A stretch of 64,000 nucleotides of DNA from Solirubrobacter deserti (GTDB lineage: Bacteria; Actinomycetota; Thermoleophilia; Solirubrobacterales; Solirubrobacteraceae), in NCBI RefSeq assembly GCF_027587175.1, contig NZ_JAPCID010000020.1, positions 1-64,000 of the forward strand, read 5' to 3'. Made by a program: the position numbers and the translations under genes. Positions 43,879 to 55,493 of the stretch are shown piece after piece. Positions within the stretch are counted from its first letter, which is position 1. Each line of letters starts with the position of its first letter. Under the pieces are notes generated by a model, which saw only the letters and a list, made by a program, of their open reading frames with translations, was not told the DNA's origin and ran no database searches.

Positions 43879-44856
43879 ATGCCAGGGTCACACATGCGTC
43901 GTGAGATGACCGAGCAGCCCGAGGTGCTCGCCCGCCTGCTCTCGCGCCGGATCGACGTGGGACTGGAGCGGCCGGCGGGCGTGATCATCGTCGCGCGCGG
44001 CTCCTCCGACCACGCGGCCGTCTACGGCCGCTACCTGCTGGAGCTCGCGACGCGCCGTCCGGTGGCGCTCGCCGCGCCCAGCCTGTTCACGCGCTACGGC
44101 GCGCGGACCGACGCGAGCGGCTGGCTCGTGGTGGGCGTGTCCCAGTCGGGCAAGACGCCCGAGATCGTCGACGTGGTCGAACGCCTGCGCGCGACGGGCG
44201 GGCACGCGGTCGCGATCACCAACGACGCCGACTCCCCGCTGGCCGCCGCCGCGGAGACCGTGATCGAGCTCGGCGCGGGGGAGGAGCGGGCCGTGCCCGC
44301 GACCAAGACCTACACGGCGCAGATGGCGGCGTTCGCGGTCCTGGCGGCGGCGTTCGGCGAGGTGCCGTGGGAGCAGGGCGCGCTGTCCGCCGTCCCCGGC
44401 GCGGTCTCAGCCGTGTTGGAGGATCCCGACCCGATGGCGACGCTCGCCGTCCGCTGGGCCGCGATCGACAAGCTCGTCGTCACCGCCCGCGGCTGGATGT
44501 TCTCGGCCGCCTTGGAGACCGCGTTGAAGGTGCGCGAGACCGCGCTCGTGTCCGCCCAGGGCTTCTCGGTCGCCGACCTGCTGCACGGGCCGATCGCGGC
44601 CGTGGATGCGGGCGCCGCCGTGCTCGCCCTGCGCGCTGACGGTCCGTCGGCGACCGATGTCGACGAGGCCGTCGAAGCACTGCAGCAGCGCGGCGCCGAC
44701 CTGCACCTGATGCCGACGGTCACCGGCGTGCCCGAAGCGCTGGCGCCGATCGCGGCCGCCGTGCGCGGTCAGCAGCTCGCGCTGGAGCTCGCGCTGCGCA
44801 AGGGGCTGGACCCCGACGCCCCGCGCGGCCTGAACAAGGTGACAATCACGCGGTAG
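43879..44856 (+). CDS. SIS-domain sugar isomerase/deaminase (GlmS C-terminal-like)
   Basis: 325 aa with two SIS domains and no glutaminase domain. First: VIIVARGSSDHAAVYGRYLLE, VVGVSQSGKTPEIVDVVERL (the SxSGxT phosphate loop), AITNDADSPLA, PATKTYTAQMAAF. Second: RGWMFSAALETALKVRETALVSAQGFSVADLLHGPIAAV, in two conserved blocks, ending with ALRKGLDPDAPRGLNKVTIT, which matches the GlmS C-terminus. Likely acts as glucosamine-6-phosphate deaminase/isomerase or an AgaS-like enzyme. The first residues before MTEQPEVL may not be translated. Overlaps lipA by 11 bp at the 3' end. Confidence 0.88.
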   Translation: MPGSHMRREMTEQPEVLARLLSRRIDVGLERPAGVIIVARGSSDHAAVYGRYLLELATRRPVALAAPSLFTRYGARTDASGWLVVGVSQSGKTPEIVDVVERLRATGGHAVAITNDADSPLAAAAETVIELGAGEERAVPATKTYTAQMAAFAVLAAAFGEVPWEQGALSAVPGAVSAVLEDPDPMATLAVRWAAIDKLVVTARGWMFSAALETALKVRETALVSAQGFSVADLLHGPIAAVDAGAAVLALRADGPSATDVDEAVEALQQRGADLHLMPTVTGVPEALAPIAAAVRGQQLALELALRKGLDPDAPRGLNKVTITR

Positions 44857-45835
44857 CGGCCGCGAGGGGCCCGACACCGGGCTGGTCCTGCGGGAAGTGC
44901 TCGTCCGCGTGGTAGCTGGAGCGGACGAGCGGGCCGGCGGCGACATGCTCGAAGCCGAGGTCGTAGGCGGCGGTCTCGAGCGCCTTGAACTCCTCGGGCT
45001 CCCAGTAGCGGACGACCGGCAGGTGGCGCTCGGTCGGGCGCAGGTACTGGCCGACGGTGAGGATCTGCACGCCCGCTTCGCGCATCTGGCCGAACGCGTC
45101 CACGAGCTCCTCGTGCGTCTCGCCGAGGCCGACCATCAGGCCGGACTTGGTCGCGACCTCGCCCTCGCCCATCTCCTGGGCGTTCGCGAGCACGCGCAGG
45201 GAGCGCTTCCAGGTGGAGCCGCGTCGCGCGACCGGGTACAGGCGCGGCGCGACCTCGAGGTTGTGGTTGAAGACGTCGGGGCGCTCGGCGATGACGCGCG
45301 CGAGCGGCATCTCCTCGCCGCGGAAGTCCGGCGTGAGGCACTCGATCTTCGTCAGCGGCGCCTGCATGCGCACGGAGCGGATGACGCCGCACCAGACGGA
45401 CGCGCCGTAGTCCGGCAGGTCGTCGCGGTCCACCGAGGTGATCACGGCGTGGCGCAGGCCCATGCGGGCGACCGAGCGGGCCACGCGCAGCGGCTCCAGC
45501 GGGTCGTTCCACGTCGGCTTGCCGGTCTTGACGTTGCAGAAGCCGCAGCGGCGCGTGCAGGTGTCGCCAAGGATCATGAACGTGGCCGTGCCGCGGTCCC
45601 AGCAGTCGCCGATGTTCGGGCAGGCCGCTTCCTTGCAGACCGTGTGCAGGCCCTCGTCGGCGATCGTCTTCGACAGCTCGCGGTACTTCGCGCTGCCGGG
45701 GCGCGGGACCTTGAACCAGGCCGGCTTGCGCGAGCGGAAGGGCAGCACGTCCTCGCCGATCACCTTGCGGACGTCCATGCCGCCCGGGTTCGACCGCGAG
45801 CGGGTTTGGTGGATGCGGAGGACCGGTTCGCTCAC
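44846..45835 (-). CDS. lipA: Lipoyl synthase
   Basis: 329 aa. Radical SAM enzyme that inserts two sulfur atoms into octanoyl groups on E2 and GcvH proteins. Auxiliary cluster Cys67, Cys72, Cys78 (CKEAACPNIGDC), SAM cluster Cys93, Cys97, Cys100 (CTRRCGFC), HAVITSVDRDDLPDYGA, and the C-terminal RSSYHADE with the Ser ligand of the auxiliary cluster. GTG 45835 overlaps the upstream stop by 4 bp (GTGA). It is separated from lipB only by the luciferase-like gene, so lipB, this flavin enzyme and lipA look like one unit that would supply the E2 proteins at 49968 and 54129. Confidence 0.97.
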   Translation of the reverse strand: MSEPVLRIHQTRSRSNPGGMDVRKVIGEDVLPFRSRKPAWFKVPRPGSAKYRELSKTIADEGLHTVCKEAACPNIGDCWDRGTATFMILGDTCTRRCGFCNVKTGKPTWNDPLEPLRVARSVARMGLRHAVITSVDRDDLPDYGASVWCGVIRSVRMQAPLTKIECLTPDFRGEEMPLARVIAERPDVFNHNLEVAPRLYPVARRGSTWKRSLRVLANAQEMGEGEVATKSGLMVGLGETHEELVDAFGQMREAGVQILTVGQYLRPTERHLPVVRYWEPEEFKALETAAYDLGFEHVAAGPLVRSSYHADEHFPQDQPGVGPLAAATA

Positions 45836-46614
45836 TGGATCGATGGTATCGGGGGCTCGGGAACGGATTCGAGGACGATCAGCGCGCGATCGACGCCCGC
45901 CTCGCGCAGCTGCGCCAAGGTCTCGGGCTTCGCGCCGTAGTAGGTCACATGAACCTGGCGCCCCGCCCGCTCGCGCAGCGCCGCGACGCGCTCGCGCAGT
46001 TCGCCGAGGTCGGGCATGTTCGGCATCCAGCCGTCGGCGTAGCGCAGCACGCGGTCTTCCACGCGCGGGCCATTGCCGCCGACCAGCACCGGCGGGACCG
46101 GCTGGGGCTTCGGCCACTGCCAGATCGGGTCGAAGTCCACCTGCTTGCCGTGGTACTCCGCCTCCTCCGCGGTCCAGAGCGCGCGCATGGCCTCGATCCG
46201 CTCGCGCATCAGGCCGTGGCGCGTGGCCGGGTCGGTGCCGTGGTTGCGCAGCTCGGGCTTGTTCCAGCCCGCGCCGATCCCGAACACGAACCGCCCGCCG
46301 GAGAGGTTCTGCAGCGACGCGATGACCTTGGCCAGCACGATCGGGTCGTGCTCGGTGACCAGGCACACGGACGTGCCGATCACGAGCCGCTCCGTGGCAG
46401 CGGCCGCGAACGCCAGCGCGACGAACGGGTCGTGCGTGCGCCGGTAGTGCTCGGCCAGCGGCCCGCCGTCGCGCGCGACCATCCCGGCCGACACCGGGAT
46501 GTGCGTGTGCTCGGTCAGCATCAGGGACTCGTAGCCCGCCGCCTCCAGGCGCTGGGCCAGCTGCGCCGGGTGCTGGACGTCCCCGGTGAGGAAGATGGCC
46601 GCGCCGACGTCCAC
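45832..46614 (-). CDS. LLM-class (luciferase-like) flavin-dependent oxidoreductase
   Basis: 260 aa, a TIM barrel of the F420/FMN type. VGAAIFLTGDVQHPAQLAQRLE at the start, SLMLTEHTHIPVS, RLVIGTSVCLVTEHDPIVLAKVIASLQNLSGGRFVFGIGAGW in two blocks, and PPVLVGGNGPRVEDRVLRYADGWMP. Such N-to-C order is typical of the TIGR03619-like group in actinobacteria. Substrate unknown. GTG 46614 shares TAGTG with the LipB stop, and the 3' end is coupled to lipA, placing an uncharacterised flavin enzyme inside the lipoate genes. Confidence 0.85.
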   Translation of the reverse strand: MDVGAAIFLTGDVQHPAQLAQRLEAAGYESLMLTEHTHIPVSAGMVARDGGPLAEHYRRTHDPFVALAFAAAATERLVIGTSVCLVTEHDPIVLAKVIASLQNLSGGRFVFGIGAGWNKPELRNHGTDPATRHGLMRERIEAMRALWTAEEAEYHGKQVDFDPIWQWPKPQPVPPVLVGGNGPRVEDRVLRYADGWMPNMPDLGELRERVAALRERAGRQVHVTYYGAKPETLAQLREAGVDRALIVLESVPEPPIPSIQ

Positions 46615-47297
46615 TACGCGGGCACCGGCTGCTCGATGCCCAGCCGCGACGCGCTCACGATCCGCTGCCGGCGGCCGAAGGCCTCGGCGAAGCGCCACGC
46701 CGCGCGCTTGCGGAAGCAGGCGACCGACTCGCGCACGCCCTCGGCGGCGATCGACGTCATCTGCACGTCCGGCAGGCCGCACGCGACCACCCAGCCGAAC
46801 GGGTCCAGGTCGTCGTCGACGTTGACCGCGAAGCCGTGCGAGGAGACGCCGTGCGAGATGTGCACGCCGACCGACGCGATCTTGCGGTCACCCACCCACA
46901 CGCCGACGTGCTTGTGGCCGAGCTTGGTGCCGGCTTGGACCCCCGCGTCCGCCAGCGCGGCGACGAGTGCCTTCTCCATCGTGAGGATGTACTCGGGCAC
47001 GCTGCTCACGCGCATGATCGGGTAGCCGACCAGTTGCCCGGGCCCGTGGTAAGTGAGCTGGCCGCCGCGCGGTGTTTGCACCACGTCGATCCCCCGCTCG
47101 CGGTAGAAGCTCTCCGGAAACGGCAGGTCGGACGTATCAGTCCGGCGCGTGACCGTATAGACCGGTGGGTGCTCCAGCAGGAGCATCAGCTCCGGCAGCT
47201 CCCCGGCGATCACCTGCGCGCGCAAACGCTCCTGCAGCGCCGTGGCCTCGCGGTATTCGACGCGGCCCAGGTGGCAGACGAGCAGCTCGGAGGGCAT
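46614..47297 (-). CDS. lipB: Octanoyltransferase (lipoyl-protein ligase B), probably also started internally
   Basis: 227 aa, normal family length, from ATG 47297 (MPSELLVCHLGRVEYREA). Motifs: LMLLLEHPPVYTVTRRTDTSDL, RGGQLTYHGPGQLVGYPI, GRKIASVGVHIS-type DRKIASVGVHISHGVSSHGFAVNV with the catalytic Lys, and ACGLPDVQMTSI with the nucleophile Cys. It moves octanoate from acyl carrier protein to lipoyl domains. A TATGCT hexamer sits 8 nt before this ATG, the same arrangement as at the XRE gene, so a separate leaderless lipB mRNA is plausible despite the open frame from the GGDEF-EAL gene. Confidence 0.93.
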   Translation of the reverse strand: MPSELLVCHLGRVEYREATALQERLRAQVIAGELPELMLLLEHPPVYTVTRRTDTSDLPFPESFYRERGIDVVQTPRGGQLTYHGPGQLVGYPIMRVSSVPEYILTMEKALVAALADAGVQAGTKLGHKHVGVWVGDRKIASVGVHISHGVSSHGFAVNVDDDLDPFGWVVACGLPDVQMTSIAAEGVRESVACFRKRAAWRFAEAFGRRQRIVSASRLGIEQPVPA

Positions 47298-49847
47298 ACG
47301 CTCCGAGCATAGAGACCACGCTACGGCGGCCAGCGAGTCCGCGGCGGTGAGCGGTTTCGAGAACAGGAAACCCTGGCCGTACTGGCACCCGAGGGCGCGC
47401 AGGGCGTGCCACTGCTCGTCCTCCTCGATCCCTTCGGCGACGACCTCGAGCGACAGCGCATGGCCGAGGCTGACCACGGCCGCGATCAGGTTCGGCTCGT
47501 CCCCGGCGAGGAACGCGCGGTCGAGCTTGAGGATGTCCACGGGCAGGCGGCTGAGGTACCCGAGCGAGGAGTGCCCGGTGCCGAAGTCGTCGAGCGCCAG
47601 CTTGATCCCCAGGGCCTTGAGGGCGGTCAGCTGGTCGACGGCGTGGTCGGCGTCGTCCATCACCATCGACTCCGTCAGCTCGAGCACGAAGCGCGAGGGG
47701 TCGAGCCCGGCGATCGCCGCCCGCACGTCCTCGACCAGCCCCGGGTCCTGCAGCTGCTTGGCCGACAGGTTCACGTTCATCCGGTAGTCGCCGTCGAGCG
47801 CGCGCAGGTGGGCGGCGGCCTCGTGCAGCGCCCAGCGTCCCATCGGGACGATCATCCCGGTCTCCTCGGCGATCGGGATGAAGTCGGCCGGCGAGACGAG
47901 CCCACGCTCGGGGTGCTGCCAGCGCATCAGCGCCTCGAAACCCGCCGTCGAGCCGTCCGAGAGCCGGACGACGGGCTGGTAGTGCAGCTCCAGCTCGTCG
48001 GCGTCGATCGCCCGCGCGAGGCCGGTGCGCAGCTCCAGCCGCGCGAGCACGCCGGCGTGCATCGCGGGCTCGAACAGGCGGTAGCTGCTCTTGCCCGCGC
48101 GCTTGGCGACGTACATCGCGGCGTCGGCGTCGCGGATCAGGTCCTCGGCGCTGCGGCCGTCGTCGCCGATCGCGACCGAGAGGCCGAGGCTCGCCCGCAG
48201 CGTGACGGACCGGTCGGCGAGGGTGACGGGCGCCGCGAGCACGTCGAGGATGCGCTGGGCCGTGTCGGCGGCCGCCTGGCTGCCGGCGCCCTCGAGCAGC
48301 ACCGCGAACTCGTCGCCGCCGAACCGCGCCGCCGCGTCCGAGCCGCGCAGCCCGCCGTCGATCCGGCGGGCGACCTCGACCAGCACGTCGTCGCCGGCGG
48401 CGTGGCCGAGTGAGTCGTTGACGAGCTTGAAGTCGTCGAGGTCGAGGAACAGCACCGCGAGCGAGCCGTCCGAGCGCCGGGAGCGGGCGATCGCGTCCCG
48501 CACGCGCTCGACGAACAGCGCGCGGTTGGCCAGCCCGGTGACCGGGTCGTGGAAGGCCTGGTGGGTGAGCTGGGCCTCGATCGCCTCGCGCTCGGTGATG
48601 TCACGCGCGTTGACGAGGATGCCGCCGACGGCCTCCTCGTCGATCAGGTTGGTGAGCTGGACCTCGAACACGCGCCGCTGGCCGTCCACGTCCACGAGCG
48701 TGCACGCGAACGCGCCGACCTCTTCGCCGGCTGTGGCGGCGGCGATCGCGCCCCGCACGCGGACACGATCCTCCGACACGAGGAACGACGCCGCGGGCTG
48801 CTCACCGAGGATGCGCGTCACCGACGGGCTGGCGTAGCTGATCCCGCCGCCCGGCTGGAGCACCAGCAGCAAGTCGGTCGCGTGGCGGACCAGCGCGGCG
48901 AAGCGCTCCTCGCCGCGGCGGCGGTGCAGCTCTTCCCCGAGCGCCCGCTGGCGCGCGGAGAGCAGGAACATGCGCGCGATCACGAGCCCGAACAGCGCCA
49001 CCGACGCCACGTGGACGACGATGAAGTCCCCGTCGCCTTCGAGAAGCTCGTCGACGGCGCCGAGCACCGGGGCCACGAGCGAGGCGAGCGTGAGCAGCGC
49101 CAGCCGCGGCCGGGTGAGCAGCAGGTCGGTGCGCCGCGGGGAGGGCGCGCCGAGGCGGGCCATCGAGGGGTGCAGCACGGCGGCGCCCCACAGCGCGGTC
49201 GCGAGCACCCAGCCGGCCTCCAGCCACGGCGGCGTGCGGTCGGCCCCGGAGAGCGTCATGGACCCGGCGGTGAAATCGGTCACGAGCAGCAGCGCGAGGC
49301 TTCCCAGCAATAGCCGGAAGGCGGGCGAGCGGCGGCCGCCGTCGAGCGCGAGCTGCGCGGCCGCCGCGAGCAGGATCAGGTCCCCGACGGGGAACGCGAT
49401 CGCCGCCAGCTGCTCGACCGGGTCGAGGTCGCTGCGCTGCAGGTACGGGGAGATGAGCGCCGTCCAGGTCGGGAGCGCGAGCCCGATCGTGACGATCAAG
49501 CCGTCGATCATCGTGCCCGCGGTCGTGCGGCAGCGGCGGCTGCGCACGAGCAGCACGAGCCCGGCCATCACCACCGGGTACATCGCCATGTAGGCGACGT
49601 GCGCGGTGGCGCTGAGCCCGGCGGTGAGCAGCACGTCCCCGAGCGATAGGCAGGCCACGCCCGCGGCCAGCACGATCCAGGCCCGCCGGGCGGTGGGCTT
49701 GAAGCGCACGATGGCGTAGACGGTCGCGACGAGGGCGGACAGCCCCGTCAGGCCGAGCACCGTCTCGCTGCCCTGCAGCGGGCCCGGGATGAGGTACAGG
49801 ACCCCGATCAGCGTGCCGAGGGCGAGGAAGATGGCCCAACGGCTCAT
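46614..49847 (-). CDS. Membrane PAS-GGDEF-EAL protein reading in frame into LipB
   Basis: 1077 aa as a single open frame. Residues 1-310 have about nine membrane helices (MASE-like). A PAS domain (330-430) comes next, with FAALVRHATDLLLVL. GGDEF domain: active site RFGGDEF (about 507), preceded five residues earlier by the I-site R-G-S-D. EAL domain: FEALMRW (about 636), DDFGTGHSSLGYLSRLPVDILKLD (around 740), ending near YGQGFLFSKPLTAADS. No stop codon follows; after about 15 residues the complete LipB sequence starts (residue 851). The upstream part could both make and degrade c-di-GMP. Whether the two parts exist as one polypeptide is unknown. Start ATG 49847. Confidence 0.82.
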   Translation of the reverse strand: MSRWAIFLALGTLIGVLYLIPGPLQGSETVLGLTGLSALVATVYAIVRFKPTARRAWIVLAAGVACLSLGDVLLTAGLSATAHVAYMAMYPVVMAGLVLLVRSRRCRTTAGTMIDGLIVTIGLALPTWTALISPYLQRSDLDPVEQLAAIAFPVGDLILLAAAAQLALDGGRRSPAFRLLLGSLALLLVTDFTAGSMTLSGADRTPPWLEAGWVLATALWGAAVLHPSMARLGAPSPRRTDLLLTRPRLALLTLASLVAPVLGAVDELLEGDGDFIVVHVASVALFGLVIARMFLLSARQRALGEELHRRRGEERFAALVRHATDLLLVLQPGGGISYASPSVTRILGEQPAASFLVSEDRVRVRGAIAAATAGEEVGAFACTLVDVDGQRRVFEVQLTNLIDEEAVGGILVNARDITEREAIEAQLTHQAFHDPVTGLANRALFVERVRDAIARSRRSDGSLAVLFLDLDDFKLVNDSLGHAAGDDVLVEVARRIDGGLRGSDAAARFGGDEFAVLLEGAGSQAAADTAQRILDVLAAPVTLADRSVTLRASLGLSVAIGDDGRSAEDLIRDADAAMYVAKRAGKSSYRLFEPAMHAGVLARLELRTGLARAIDADELELHYQPVVRLSDGSTAGFEALMRWQHPERGLVSPADFIPIAEETGMIVPMGRWALHEAAAHLRALDGDYRMNVNLSAKQLQDPGLVEDVRAAIAGLDPSRFVLELTESMVMDDADHAVDQLTALKALGIKLALDDFGTGHSSLGYLSRLPVDILKLDRAFLAGDEPNLIAAVVSLGHALSLEVVAEGIEEDEQWHALRALGCQYGQGFLFSKPLTAADSLAAVAWSLCSERMPSELLVCHLGRVEYREATALQERLRAQVIAGELPELMLLLEHPPVYTVTRRTDTSDLPFPESFYRERGIDVVQTPRGGQLTYHGPGQLVGYPIMRVSSVPEYILTMEKALVAALADAGVQAGTKLGHKHVGVWVGDRKIASVGVHISHGVSSHGFAVNVDDDLDPFGWVVACGLPDVQMTSIAAEGVRESVACFRKRAAWRFAEAFGRRQRIVSASRLGIEQPVPA
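47306..47311 (-). promoter_or_regulatory. Putative leaderless -10 (TATGCT) of lipB inside the fused frame
   Basis: Minus-strand TATGCT, 8 nt before ATG 47297, located in the linker codons between the EAL and LipB parts. Confidence 0.5.
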
Positions 49848-49906
49848 GAGCCGGGAATCGGCGCTCGTGAGCCGATCTTGAGGTGCGCCTCCCCCGCTGG
49901 ATCTGT

Positions 49907-49941
49907 CCCGCCCCGGAGGCCTTCCAGCCGTCCGGGGCGGG
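49907..49941. terminator. Hairpin downstream of the E2 gene
   Basis: CCCGCCCCGGA (49907-49917) pairs perfectly with TCCGGGGCGGG (49931-49941), with a 13-nt loop. It lies 27 bp past the stop of the E2 gene at 49968 and would end the E1-alpha/E1-beta/E2 transcript before the GGDEF-EAL gene. The rest of 49848-49967 shows only a CGGCTC direct repeat. Confidence 0.7.
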
Positions 49942-49967
49942 TGTCCGTCAGACCCCGTCTCTCTAGG

Positions 49968-51281
49968 TCAGGTGATCGGCCAGGACTCCAGTTTCTTTCG
50001 CAGCGCGCTGAGGAACTGCGCGGCGTACGCGCCGTCGAGCGCGCGGTGGTCCCAGGACATGCACAGGTACGTCATCGAGCGGATCGCGATCGAGTCGTTG
50101 CCGAGCTCGTCCGTGACCACGACCGGGCGCTTGACGACGGCCTCGGTGTCGAGGATGCCGACCTGCGGGAGGTTGATCACGGGCGTGGCCATGATCGACC
50201 CGAACGGCCCGGGGTTGGTGATCGTGAACGTGCCGCCGCTCACCTCGTCCGGCGTGAGCTGGTTCGTCCGCGCGCGGGCCGCGAGGTCCTTGATGCGCTT
50301 GCTCAGACCCTCGACGCTGAGGTCCTGCGCGTCGCGGATCACCGGGACGATCAGGCCGCCCTCGCCCAGGCTCACCGCGATGCCGAGGTGCACGGCTTCG
50401 CTGTGGACCGTGTGCTGGTCGCCTTCGAGCGTCGCGTTCAGGTGCGGGAACTCGAGCAGGGTCTCGATCGTGGCGCGCGCCTGGAACGGCAGGTAGCTCA
50501 TCTTGGCCGCCTTGCGGGCGACCTCGATGCGGCTCATGTCGGCCTCGGCGATGGTCGTGCACGTCGCGGCGGTCTGCAGCGACTGGACCATGCGGGAGCC
50601 GATGGCCTGGCGCATGCGGCTCAGCGACCCACCGCTCGGGCTCGGAGCGGCGACCGTGTCGCTCTTTGGTACTTCCTCGACGCGCTGCAGCCGGGGCTTC
50701 GGCTTGCGCTTGATCGCGGGCTCGTCGGGCCGGTACGGCGACTCGATGTGCATCGGCGGCTCCTCAGCGCCGCCCTCCATGAACGCCAGCACGTCCTTCT
50801 TCGACACCCGGCCGCCACGGCCGGTGCCCTGAACCTGCGAGAGATCGATGTTGTGCTCGGCCGCCATGCGCATGACCACGGGGGAGTAGCGCTTGGCCTG
50901 CGAGGTGTCGCGCTCGGCGTCGCCGAGCAACTCGCCGGCCGCCCCGGGGGCTTCGACCGCCGCCGCGGCCTCGCCCGTGCCGAGGTCGCCGTTCTCGGAC
51001 GCGTGCGCCTCACCCGGCCGCGCATCGGTCGCGATCCGCGCCATCACGACCCCGACGTCCACGGTGTCGCCGACGTTGACGATGATCTCCGCCACGCGGC
51101 CCGTGGCGGGTGACTCGACGTCGGTGTCGATCTTGTCGGTCGAGATCGAGGCGATGATCTCGTCGGCCTCGATCCAGTCGCCGACCTGCTTCTTCCACTC
51201 GACGACCGTGCCCTCCGCGACGGACACGCCCATCTGGGGCATGGTCACGTCCACGTGAGTGCTAGTACTCGAGGAGCTCAC
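49968..51281 (-). CDS. 2-oxoacid dehydrogenase E2 (dihydrolipoamide acyltransferase), set A
   Basis: 437 aa. Lipoyl domain with K50 in SISTDKIDTDVESPATG, an Ala/Glu linker, an E3/E1-binding domain (YSPVVMRMAAEHNIDLSQVQGTGRGGRVSKKDV), and the catalytic domain ending MSWDHRALDGAYAAQFL with the canonical H-x-x-x-D-G. The best match by pattern is the branched-chain or acetoin type. Transfers acyl groups from lipoate to CoA. GTG 51281 overlaps the E1-beta stop by 20 bp; GTG 51254 (VDVTMPQMG) is an alternative start. Third gene of an E1-alpha, E1-beta, E2 operon, without its own E3. Confidence 0.92.
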   Translation of the reverse strand: MSSSSTSTHVDVTMPQMGVSVAEGTVVEWKKQVGDWIEADEIIASISTDKIDTDVESPATGRVAEIIVNVGDTVDVGVVMARIATDARPGEAHASENGDLGTGEAAAAVEAPGAAGELLGDAERDTSQAKRYSPVVMRMAAEHNIDLSQVQGTGRGGRVSKKDVLAFMEGGAEEPPMHIESPYRPDEPAIKRKPKPRLQRVEEVPKSDTVAAPSPSGGSLSRMRQAIGSRMVQSLQTAATCTTIAEADMSRIEVARKAAKMSYLPFQARATIETLLEFPHLNATLEGDQHTVHSEAVHLGIAVSLGEGGLIVPVIRDAQDLSVEGLSKRIKDLAARARTNQLTPDEVSGGTFTITNPGPFGSIMATPVINLPQVGILDTEAVVKRPVVVTDELGNDSIAIRSMTYLCMSWDHRALDGAYAAQFLSALRKKLESWPIT

Positions 51282-52224
51282 GGCACGCCTCCCTGACGTC
51301 GTCGACCTGGGGCAGGACGGCCTGCTCGAGCGTGGGCGAGAACGGGATCGGCACGTCCGGCGTCGCCACGCGGACGATCGGGCCGTCCAGGTCCTCGAAC
51401 GCGCGCTCGGCGATCATCGCCGACACCTGCGCGCCCGCGGCGCACATCTGGTTGGCCTCGTCGACGATCACGACCTTGCTCGTCTTGCGCACGCTGTTGA
51501 GGATCGCCTCCTCGTCGAGCGGGACCAGCGAGCGCAGGTCGAGCACCTCGACCGAGCCGTCGAGGTCGGCGGTCGCCTCCAGCGCGGTGTGGACCATCGC
51601 GCCGTAGGTGATCACGGTGAGGTCGGTCCCCTCGCGCGCGATCCGCGCCGTGAACGGCGTCTCGTACGTGCCGCCGGGCACCTCGCCCTTCACGCGCCGG
51701 TACAGGTGCTTGTGCTCCATGAACAGCACCGGGTTGGGGTCGCGGACGGCGCTGATCAGCAGGCCCTTGGCGTCCTCGGCGGTGCTCGGGGCCACGATCT
51801 TCAACCCCGGCGCGTGCATGAACCACGCCTCGGGGTTCTGGGAGTGGAACGGGCCGCCGGAGAAGCCGCCACCGGAAGGGAGCCGGACGGTGATGTTCAC
51901 CGACAGCCCCATCCGGTAGTGGGTCTTGCCCGCGACGTTGACCAGCTGGTCGAAGCCGCAGCTGACGAAGTCGGAGAACTGCATCTCGGCGATCGGGCGC
52001 ATGCCCTCCACCGCCGAGCCGATCGCGCAGCCGATGATCGCCGACTCGGCCAGCGGCGTGTCCATCACACGGCTCGCCCCGAACTCGTCGATGAAGCCGT
52101 CGGTCACCTTGAAGGCGCCGCCGAAGGTTCCGATGTCCTCGCCCATCAAGAAGACGCGCTCGTCGGAGCGCATCTCCTCGCGCATGGCGTCGGAAATCGC
52201 CTGCAGGTAGGTCATGGTCGGCAT
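51262..52224 (-). CDS. 2-oxoacid dehydrogenase E1 beta subunit, set A
   Basis: 320 aa. Transketolase-like pyrimidine domain: YLQAISDAMREEMRSDERVFLMGEDIGTFGGAFKVTDG in two blocks, RVMDTPLAESAIIGCAIGSAVEGMRPIAEMQFSDF (Glu that contacts TPP), then the C-terminal domain (DLTVITYGAMVHTALEA, VVIVDEANQMCAAGAQVSAMI, GPIVRVATPDVPIPFS). Shape and length fit BCKDH or acetoin E1-beta. ATG 52224, 4 nt after the E1-alpha stop. Forms the alpha2-beta2 E1 that decarboxylates the 2-oxoacid with thiamine diphosphate. Confidence 0.92.
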   Translation of the reverse strand: MPTMTYLQAISDAMREEMRSDERVFLMGEDIGTFGGAFKVTDGFIDEFGASRVMDTPLAESAIIGCAIGSAVEGMRPIAEMQFSDFVSCGFDQLVNVAGKTHYRMGLSVNITVRLPSGGGFSGGPFHSQNPEAWFMHAPGLKIVAPSTAEDAKGLLISAVRDPNPVLFMEHKHLYRRVKGEVPGGTYETPFTARIAREGTDLTVITYGAMVHTALEATADLDGSVEVLDLRSLVPLDEEAILNSVRKTSKVVIVDEANQMCAAGAQVSAMIAERAFEDLDGPIVRVATPDVPIPFSPTLEQAVLPQVDDVREACRELLEY

Positions 52225-52228
52225 GGCG

Positions 52229-53272
52229 CTAGCTCCGGAAACCCGACCAGGGGGCGTTGCCGTCCTCGAGCAGCGCCGGCTCGTCCGCGAACAGGCCGTC
52301 CAGCACCGTGTCCGGATCGGGCTGGGGCGACTGCAGCGCACGCTCGACGGCGGCCTCGATCTCGGCCTTGACCTCGTCGCGCACGGCCTGCGTGTCCACG
52401 CCCAACGCCTCGAGGCGGCGCACCTGGCGGTCGATCGGGTCCTTCGCGCGCCATTCCTCGACCTTCTCGGTCGGGACGTACTTCATGTCGTCGTGGGCGG
52501 CGTGGCCGTGCATGCGCATGGTCACGGCCTCGACGAGCGTCGGGCCCTCGCCGGCCAGCGCGCGCTCGCGCGCCTGGCGGACGACCTCGAACATCGCCTC
52601 GGGGTCGTTGCCGTCCGCTGAGACGCCCGGGAAGCCGTAGGCGGCGGCGCGCTCGATCGGGTTCACGGCGAACTGCTGGTCCAGCGGCGTCGAGTAGGCG
52701 TACTGGTTGTTCTCGAGGATGAAGATGACCGGCAGCTTCTGCACGCCGGCCCAGTTCATGGCCTCGTGGAAGTCGCCGCGCGAGGTCGAGCCGTCGCCGA
52801 ACCAGGTGATCGCGCAGCGCCGTTCACCGCGCAGCTTGAACGCCATCGCCATCCCGGTCGCGATCAGCATCATGTCCGGGAGCATCGAGACCATGCCGAC
52901 GCAGCCCTTCGTGCGGTCGCCGAAGTGCACGTTGCCGTCGCGCCCGCGCGTGATGCCGTCGGCCCGGCCCATGTACTGGGCGAAGATGCGCCACGGCTCG
53001 ACGCCGCGGATGATGTGCGCCGCGAGGTCGCGATGCAGGATGCACAGGCGGTCCTGCGCCGCCATCGCCCACGTCGCTCCCGCGGACACGGCCTCCTGGC
53101 CGAAGCCGTCGTAGAAGCTCCCCGGCACCTTGCCCTGCCGGTAGAGCGTCATCGCGCGTTCTTCGATCCCCCGCATCATCAGCATCGCTTTGAGCAACCC
53201 GACGCGGTCTTCCGTCGTCAGGTGCTCCGATACGTCCGGAGGTACTTCGGTTCGGGCGGTCTCAGTCGCCAT
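52229..53272 (-). CDS. 2-oxoacid dehydrogenase E1 alpha subunit, set A
   Basis: 347 aa. LLKAMLMMRGIEERAMTLYRQGKVPGSFYDGFGQEAV at the start, HRDLAAHIIRG, then the TPP motif WFGDGSTSRGDFHEAMNWAGVQKLPVIF (GDG-x-N form), ENNQYAYSTPLDQQ and EAVTMRMHGHAAHDD. The final block KYVPTEKVEEWRAKDPIDR is typical of branched-chain or acetoin dehydrogenases. ATG 53272 has a GAAGGAG about 11-12 nt upstream; the upstream open frame is not family-like. The 139-bp gap to the next gene shows no other clear promoter. Confidence 0.92.
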   Translation of the reverse strand: MATETARTEVPPDVSEHLTTEDRVGLLKAMLMMRGIEERAMTLYRQGKVPGSFYDGFGQEAVSAGATWAMAAQDRLCILHRDLAAHIIRGVEPWRIFAQYMGRADGITRGRDGNVHFGDRTKGCVGMVSMLPDMMLIATGMAMAFKLRGERRCAITWFGDGSTSRGDFHEAMNWAGVQKLPVIFILENNQYAYSTPLDQQFAVNPIERAAAYGFPGVSADGNDPEAMFEVVRQARERALAGEGPTLVEAVTMRMHGHAAHDDMKYVPTEKVEEWRAKDPIDRQVRRLEALGVDTQAVRDEVKAEIEAAVERALQSPQPDPDTVLDGLFADEPALLEDGNAPWSGFRS

Positions 53273-53411
53273 CTGGGCGTGCTCTCCTTCGCGGTTTCTG
53301 TGCGCCGCCCCAGGATCGCCGGGGCCTGCGCCGGTCCGGGCGGACGGGATCTCCGTCGCTGTCCGGTCAGGGGTGAGCCTACGGCATGGCGGGTTATCGT
53401 TGACGCCCACG

Positions 53412-54128: not shown

Positions 54129-55493
54129 CTAGAGGACGAGCCGGAGCGGCTGCTCGAGGTACTCGCGGATGCGGCCCAGGAACTCGGCGGCCTCCGCGCC
54201 GTACAGGATCCGGTGGTCGCAGCTGAGCGTGAGCTCCATGATCGTGCGGACCACGACCTCGCCGTCGCGGACCACGGGGCGCGGCGTGAGCTCGCCGACG
54301 GCCAAAATCGCGGCCTGCGGCGGATTGATCACGGCCACGAAGCGCTTGATGCCGTACATGCCGAGGTTGGAGATCGTGAACGTGCCCGCCGAGAGCTCGG
54401 GCGGCGTGATCTTGCCCTCGCGTACGCGCTCGGCCAGCTTGCGTGCCTCCTCGGCGATCTGACCGAGGCTCTTGGCGTCGGCGTCGAACACCGTGGGGAC
54501 GACGAGCGCGTTCTGGCCCGCGACCGCGACGCCGACGTTCACGCGCGAGTAGAGCTCGAACTGCCCGTCGCGGTAGGCGCCGTTCGCGCGCGGGAAGTCC
54601 TTGAGCGCGAGCGCCGAGGCCTTGATGACGAAGTCGTTGAAGGACGGGGCGGGCGCGTCCCCGGCGGCGGCCTTCAGCTGCGCGCGCAGGTCGACGGCGT
54701 CGGTCATGTCGACCTCGAGCGTCATCACGAAGTCCGGCGCGGTGGCCTTGGACTCCGCCATGCGCCGCGCGACGGTGCGCTGCAGGCGGGACAGCTCGAC
54801 CTGCTCGGTCTCGCCGCGGCCCTGGTCGGCCGCGCGCCCCTTCTTCGGCGCCTCCTCCTCCTTGGGCGCCTTCTCCTCGGGCGCGGACTGCTCGACGTCG
54901 GCCTTCACGATCCGCCCGCCGGGTCCGCTGCCCTCGACGGTGGAGAGGTCGATGCCCTGCTCGGACGCGATCCGCCGCGCGATCGGCGACGCCTTGATGC
55001 GCTCGCCCTCCTCCGGCTCGGGCTCCTTGTCGTCGCGCTTGTCGCCGGCCTCGCCGGTGTCCGCCTCGCCCTCATCCTCGGACGCCTCGTCGGCCGCGCC
55101 GGAGTCGCCCTGGTCCTCGGCCTCCTCGCCCGCGGACTCGTCCTCGTCGTCCTCGTCCTCGTCGGACGCCTCCGGCTCCTCGTCGCCCGCCTCCTCGGCC
55201 TCGGGCGCCTCGGGCTCCTCGTCGTTGGACTCGGATGCCTCGGACTCGTCGGACGCGCCGCCGCCCTCGCCGATCCGGCAGATCGTCTCGCCGACCGGCA
55301 GCGTGTCGCCCTCCTGCGCCACGATCTCGAGCGTCCCGGCCTCGTCGGCCTCGTAGGTCATGTTGGCCTTGTCGGTCTCGATCTCGACCAGCTCGTCGCC
55401 CTTGGAGACCTCATCCCCGTCGGACTTCAGCCACTTGAGGATCGTGCCTTCCTCCATCGAGTCCGACAGGCGGGGCATGGCGACGTCTGACAT
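54129..55493 (-). CDS. Pyruvate dehydrogenase E2-like acyltransferase with long acidic linker, set B
   Basis: 454 aa. Lipoyl domain with K42 in EIETDKANMTYEA, then an unusual linker (about 77-165) made mostly of Glu, Asp and Ser instead of Ala/Pro. The E3/E1-binding domain is IKASPIARRIASEQGIDLSTVEGSGPGGRIVKADV, and the catalytic domain ends SCDHRILYGAEAAEFL. The usual catalytic Asp of DHRxxDG is Tyr here. To my knowledge plastid and cyanobacterial E2p proteins also have DHRxxYG, and the E1-beta at 60315 is of that type, so they probably form one complex although 5 kb apart. TAATAC on the HK stop lies 8 nt upstream of ATG 55493. Confidence 0.9.
   Translation of the reverse strand: MSDVAMPRLSDSMEEGTILKWLKSDGDEVSKGDELVEIETDKANMTYEADEAGTLEIVAQEGDTLPVGETICRIGEGGGASDESEASESNDEEPEAPEAEEAGDEEPEASDEDEDDEDESAGEEAEDQGDSGAADEASEDEGEADTGEAGDKRDDKEPEPEEGERIKASPIARRIASEQGIDLSTVEGSGPGGRIVKADVEQSAPEEKAPKEEEAPKKGRAADQGRGETEQVELSRLQRTVARRMAESKATAPDFVMTLEVDMTDAVDLRAQLKAAAGDAPAPSFNDFVIKASALALKDFPRANGAYRDGQFELYSRVNVGVAVAGQNALVVPTVFDADAKSLGQIAEEARKLAERVREGKITPPELSAGTFTISNLGMYGIKRFVAVINPPQAAILAVGELTPRPVVRDGEVVVRTIMELTLSCDHRILYGAEAAEFLGRIREYLEQPLRLVL

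What the first reader, a model, noticed from the sequence alone, without database searches (positions are those of the whole stretch)
46614..49847. GGDEF-EAL c-di-GMP protein in frame with LipB, no stop codon between them
A single open frame of 1077 codons holds a complete membrane PAS-GGDEF-EAL protein and a complete octanoyltransferase (from residue 851), with about 15 residues between the end of the EAL fold and the LipB start. I know of no described link between c-di-GMP turnover and lipoyl attachment. The LipB part keeps its catalytic Lys and Cys and has its own ATG with a TATGCT hexamer 8 nt upstream, so both a fusion protein and a free LipB could be made. The gene is followed directly by the flavin oxidoreductase and lipA.
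Basis: partly seen in the sequence, partly recalled or inferred. Interest (0 to 1): 0.72.

Follow-up and report, generated by a model that had tools for sequence, protein, structure and literature searches.

The report
Neighbouring genes joined by lost stop
In one Solirubrobacter genome a single-letter change removed the stop codon between a signalling-enzyme gene and the lipoate gene lipB beside it; all five related species checked still keep the two genes separate, and lipB seems to have its own promoter, so this looks like a chance event or a base-call error and not a new signalling-metabolism protein.

Summary
In detail: window 46614-49847 (-) is one 1077-codon ORF with membrane segments, PAS, GGDEF and EAL domains joined in frame to a complete LipB. 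Codon-position composition shows that both halves are read in their true coding frame. The interpretation as a notable fusion is mostly undone by relatives. All five other Solirubrobacter species held carry the same GGDEF-EAL gene upstream of lipB, but with its own stop. In the three closest the stop falls at the same codon (TGA, TGA, TAG), where the window has TGG, codon 844, 47316-47318. So one substitution, not an indel, opened the frame, because lipB lies in the same phase. No other sampled genome of the class or phylum shows an EAL-LipB frame. A TANNNT -10-like box sits 6-8 nt before the lipB ATG in all six species, even where the upstream DNA differs, so free LipB is probably made from its own near-leaderless promoter. 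Best reading: a stop loss in one lineage, real or a base-call error, without evidence of a functional fusion. What is conserved in the genus is a c-di-GMP gene lying between the E2 and lipB genes.

The parts
47319..49847 (-). GGDEF-EAL gene (843 aa up to the ancestral stop position): hydrophobic N-terminal segments, PAS, GGDEF with I-site, EAL
   Evidence: Pfam; motifs and hydropathy; orthologues with their own stop in 5 congeners
47316..47318 (-). Codon 844, TGG (Trp), at the position of the stop in relatives (TGA in S. taibaiensis and G001, TAG in S. phytolaccae): the lost stop
47298..47318 (-). Read-through linker WSLCSER; former stop and intergenic stretch
   Evidence: 18 nt gap after the stop in S. 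taibaiensis
47306..47311 (-). TATGCT, -10-like element of a probable near-leaderless lipB promoter
   Evidence: TANNNT 6-8 nt before the lipB ATG in all 6 Solirubrobacter species; enrichment before starts in this genome
46614..47297 (-). lipB, octanoyltransferase, 227 aa, own ATG
   Evidence: Pfam and NCBIfam; 76-90% identical free LipB in congeners
45832..46614 (-). LLM-type flavin oxidoreductase, GTG start overlapping the lipB stop
44846..45772 (-). lipA, lipoyl synthase (approximate start)
   Evidence: ORF; conserved order; named from sequence and context
49968..51281 (-). 2-oxoacid dehydrogenase E2 gene upstream of the GGDEF-EAL gene
   Evidence: ORF; conserved order

Best explanation
Two separate neighbouring genes, a membrane PAS-GGDEF-EAL c-di-GMP enzyme and lipB, became one open frame in this Solirubrobacter lineage through one stop-loss substitution (TGA or TAG to TGG). 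LipB needed for lipoylation is most likely still made from its own ATG, driven by a conserved near-leaderless promoter whose -10 box lies in the old intergenic stretch. Ribosomes that translate the GGDEF-EAL message would now run on and add LipB as a tail, a by-product without known function. Shown: the frame, the lost stop, the stop kept in all five congeners, the conserved TANNNT box. Inferred: promoter activity, free LipB, and lack of function of the fusion.
For: Stops at the same codon in the three closest species and a stop before lipB in all five. The joined frame is unique among 398 class and 396 phylum genomes sampled, two overlapping draws. TANNNT at 6-8 nt before the lipB ATG in 6 of 6 species, including S. 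phytolaccae (177-nt gap) and Ca. S. pratensis (1.3 kb of other DNA before lipB). TANNNT at spacing 6-8 is found 28 times for 547 start-region ATGs against 4 for 2145 internal ATGs. Leaderless genes with TANNNT are common in Actinobacteria (PMC3160421). The two halves evolve at different rates, dN/dS 0.40 and 0.19 against S. taibaiensis.
Against: No transcript or protein data. Only six species of the genus are held, and only one genome of this species, so it is not known whether the open frame is fixed.
Confidence: 0.8

Rival explanations
1. The TGG is a base-call or consensus error in a draft assembly, and the real genome has TGA or TAG as in its relatives; there is no joined frame at all.
For: The genome is a draft of 428 contigs; one base separates TGG from either relative's stop; the joined frame is seen in no other genome.
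Against: The neighbouring codons also differ from relatives (GTA GCG against GTG AGG; CGT against GAG before the ATG; codon 2 of lipB CCC against GCC), so the stretch is diverging anyway, and the site lies well inside a 948-kb contig. Reads are not available.
Confidence: 0.14
2. A functional fusion: LipB is tethered to a membrane c-di-GMP enzyme, so that octanoyl transfer to the E2 subunit encoded next door is localised or tuned by c-di-GMP.
For: Both halves keep their catalytic motifs; the GGDEF-EAL gene lies between the E2 and lipB genes in all six species.
Against: The five other species do without the fusion; no other EAL-LipB frame found; separate promoter-like element kept at lipB; no paper found that links the two.
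Confidence: 0.05

Closest known systems
Adjacent, separate GGDEF-EAL and lipB genes of S. taibaiensis (L040), S. phytolaccae (L039), G001 (L041), S. soli (L042)
   Same: Same genes, order, orientation and domains; in S. taibaiensis and S. phytolaccae lipB is even in the same phase
   Different: A stop codon ends the GGDEF-EAL gene before lipB
LipB octanoyltransferase (TIGR00214, PRK14345)
   Same: Full-length domain above cut-off, catalytic Lys and Cys, own start
   Different: An in-frame upstream extension of 850 codons
PAS-GGDEF-EAL dual c-di-GMP enzymes (for example DibA-like)
   Same: Domain order and motifs
   Different: C-terminal read-through into LipB
Leaderless actinobacterial genes (TANNNT about 12 bp before the start; PMC3160421)
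   Same: TANNNT begins 12-14 bp before the lipB ATG
   Different: No transcript start has been mapped here

Membership tests
LipB octanoyltransferase | LplA-B catalytic domain and LipB model above cut-off | tested here: met
LipB octanoyltransferase | Catalytic Lys and Cys | tested here: met
   K989 and C1023, in columns conserved among the LipB rows of alignment A2
LipB octanoyltransferase | Octanoyl transfer activity | not testable with these tools
   needs an assay or complementation
GGDEF-EAL c-di-GMP enzyme | Intact GGDEF and EAL domains with active-site motifs | tested here: met
GGDEF-EAL c-di-GMP enzyme | Cyclase or phosphodiesterase activity | not testable with these tools
   needs an assay
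Conserved two-domain fusion protein | Fused arrangement shared by relatives | tested here: not met
   stop before lipB in all 5 congeners; no other fused frame
Leaderless gene (lipB) | -10 box about 6-7 nt before the start codon | tested here: met
   spacing 6-8 in 6 of 6 species, 8 in the window itself
Leaderless gene (lipB) | Transcript start at the start codon | not testable with these tools
   needs 5' end mapping

The most novel reading that the evidence does not exclude
The fusion protein is made and used in this species: a membrane c-di-GMP enzyme carries LipB and couples second-messenger state to lipoylation of the 2-oxoacid dehydrogenase encoded upstream, beside a pool of free LipB.
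Probability: 0.04. Interest if true: 0.6.

Novelty: new member of a known kind. Interest (0 to 1): 0.15.

Why it matters
Mostly as a caution and a small natural experiment: an automatic annotation would report a c-di-GMP/LipB fusion enzyme and could lose lipB as a separate gene. It also shows how one substitution can join neighbours in a high-GC genome when the downstream gene has its own promoter. The conserved placing of a c-di-GMP gene between the E2 and lipB genes throughout the genus is the part that could deserve a test.

Tried and rejected
Chance openness in a high-GC genome: rejected for the window by codon-position GC, although it explains the long frames upstream of eight other lipB loci. 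Indel or frameshift near 47300-47345: rejected, since the window and S. taibaiensis align there without gaps. Fusion conserved in relatives: rejected. Papers on LipB with GGDEF or c-di-GMP: nothing pertinent. An alignment meant for a structure prediction of EAL-LipB placed EAL rows on LipB columns, so no prediction was run.

Full report
What is there. Window 46614-49847 on the minus strand is one open frame from ATG to TAG, 1077 codons. Its first part has several hydrophobic segments, PAS_4 (323-421), GGDEF (431-587) and EAL (610-832); its last part is a full LipB domain (865-1041). The motifs are intact: I-site R501-D504, GGDEF 510-514, EAL E638, DDFGTG 753, LipB Lys989 and Cys1023. LipB has its own ATG at residue 851.

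Is the frame more than chance? High-GC genomes have long stop-free frames by accident. Of 30 lipB loci examined, nine have at least 100 open codons upstream in the lipB frame. In eight of these the codon-position composition shows that the frame is not a coding frame. Only in the window is the upstream frame truly coding (GC by position 0.76/0.45/0.97), and that pattern continues across the junction.

What relatives show. The window belongs to a Solirubrobacter genome: contig lengths tie its congeners to S. taibaiensis (G004), S. phytolaccae (G003), S. soli (G005) and Ca. S. pratensis (G002); G001 is unnamed here. All five congeners have the same GGDEF-EAL gene upstream of lipB, and in all five it ends with its own stop. 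S. taibaiensis reads GCC GTG AGG TGA TCT CTA TGC TCG GAG GAG ATG, the window GCC GTA GCG TGG TCT CTA TGC TCG GAG CGT ATG. The stop is TGA in S. taibaiensis and G001 and TAG in S. phytolaccae, at the same codon. The window therefore differs from the ancestral state by a stop loss at codon 844 (47316-47318). In S. taibaiensis lipB is in the same phase as the upstream gene, which shows that loss of one stop is enough to give a joined frame. Searches of 398 genomes of the class and 396 of the phylum (even draws, partly the same genomes) found no other joined EAL-LipB frame; these are samples, not a census.

How LipB is probably made. TATGCT lies 8 nt before the lipB ATG. A TANNNT box at 6, 7 or 8 nt is found in all six Solirubrobacter species, including S. 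phytolaccae, where 177 nt separate the genes, and Ca. S. pratensis, where 1.3 kb of other DNA lies between. It also occurs at about that spacing at ten or so of 24 lipB starts outside the genus. In about 0.86 Mb of this genome the box at spacing 6-8 was counted 28 times for 547 ATGs in start regions and 4 times for 2145 internal ATGs (Fisher p about 4e-16; the counts are by position and the start calls are rough). Leaderless genes with this box are common in Actinobacteria (PMC3160421). I infer that free LipB is made from its own near-leaderless promoter whatever happens at the upstream stop. No transcript data were available.

Selection. Against S. taibaiensis dN/dS is 0.40 for the GGDEF-EAL gene and 0.19 for lipB (simple counting method): both are constrained. 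The linker is too short to test.

What remains of interest. In all six species the GGDEF-EAL gene lies between the E2 gene and lipB, next to the flavin oxidoreductase and lipA genes. In several genomes of the family and order E2 is followed at once by lipB (for example L016 and L026), so the GGDEF-EAL gene appears to have been placed there in the Solirubrobacter line. The genome has 52 matches to the query, nearly all GGDEF or EAL, so one such neighbour may be chance followed by inheritance.

Verdict. A real open frame of the ordinary stop-loss kind, seen in one genome, possibly a base-call error; no evidence that it works as a fusion.

Noticed in passing
window 44846-53275 and L039-L043, L065: Gene order E1alpha-E1beta-E2, GGDEF-EAL, lipB, flavin oxidoreductase, lipA is kept in Solirubrobacter (E1 genes not covered by the S. 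pratensis stretch fetched); outside the genus E2 and lipB are sometimes adjacent without the GGDEF-EAL gene.
   Followed up: partly
window about 54153-55487 (-): A second E2-like stretch (30% identical to the E2 at 49968-51281) lies upstream of the E1alpha gene.
   Followed up: no
L039 4975-5139: S. phytolaccae has about 165 nt of extra GC-rich sequence between the GGDEF-EAL stop and lipB; by eye it may be a small repeat element.
   Followed up: no
G000 (whole assembly): 52 matches to the query, nearly all GGDEF and/or EAL: a large c-di-GMP network.
   Followed up: no
genomes G038, G041, G047, G055, G057, G059: In several genomes of one family of the order, LipB matches come as two pieces separated by a short gap, possibly an insertion or a frame change in lipB.
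   Followed up: no
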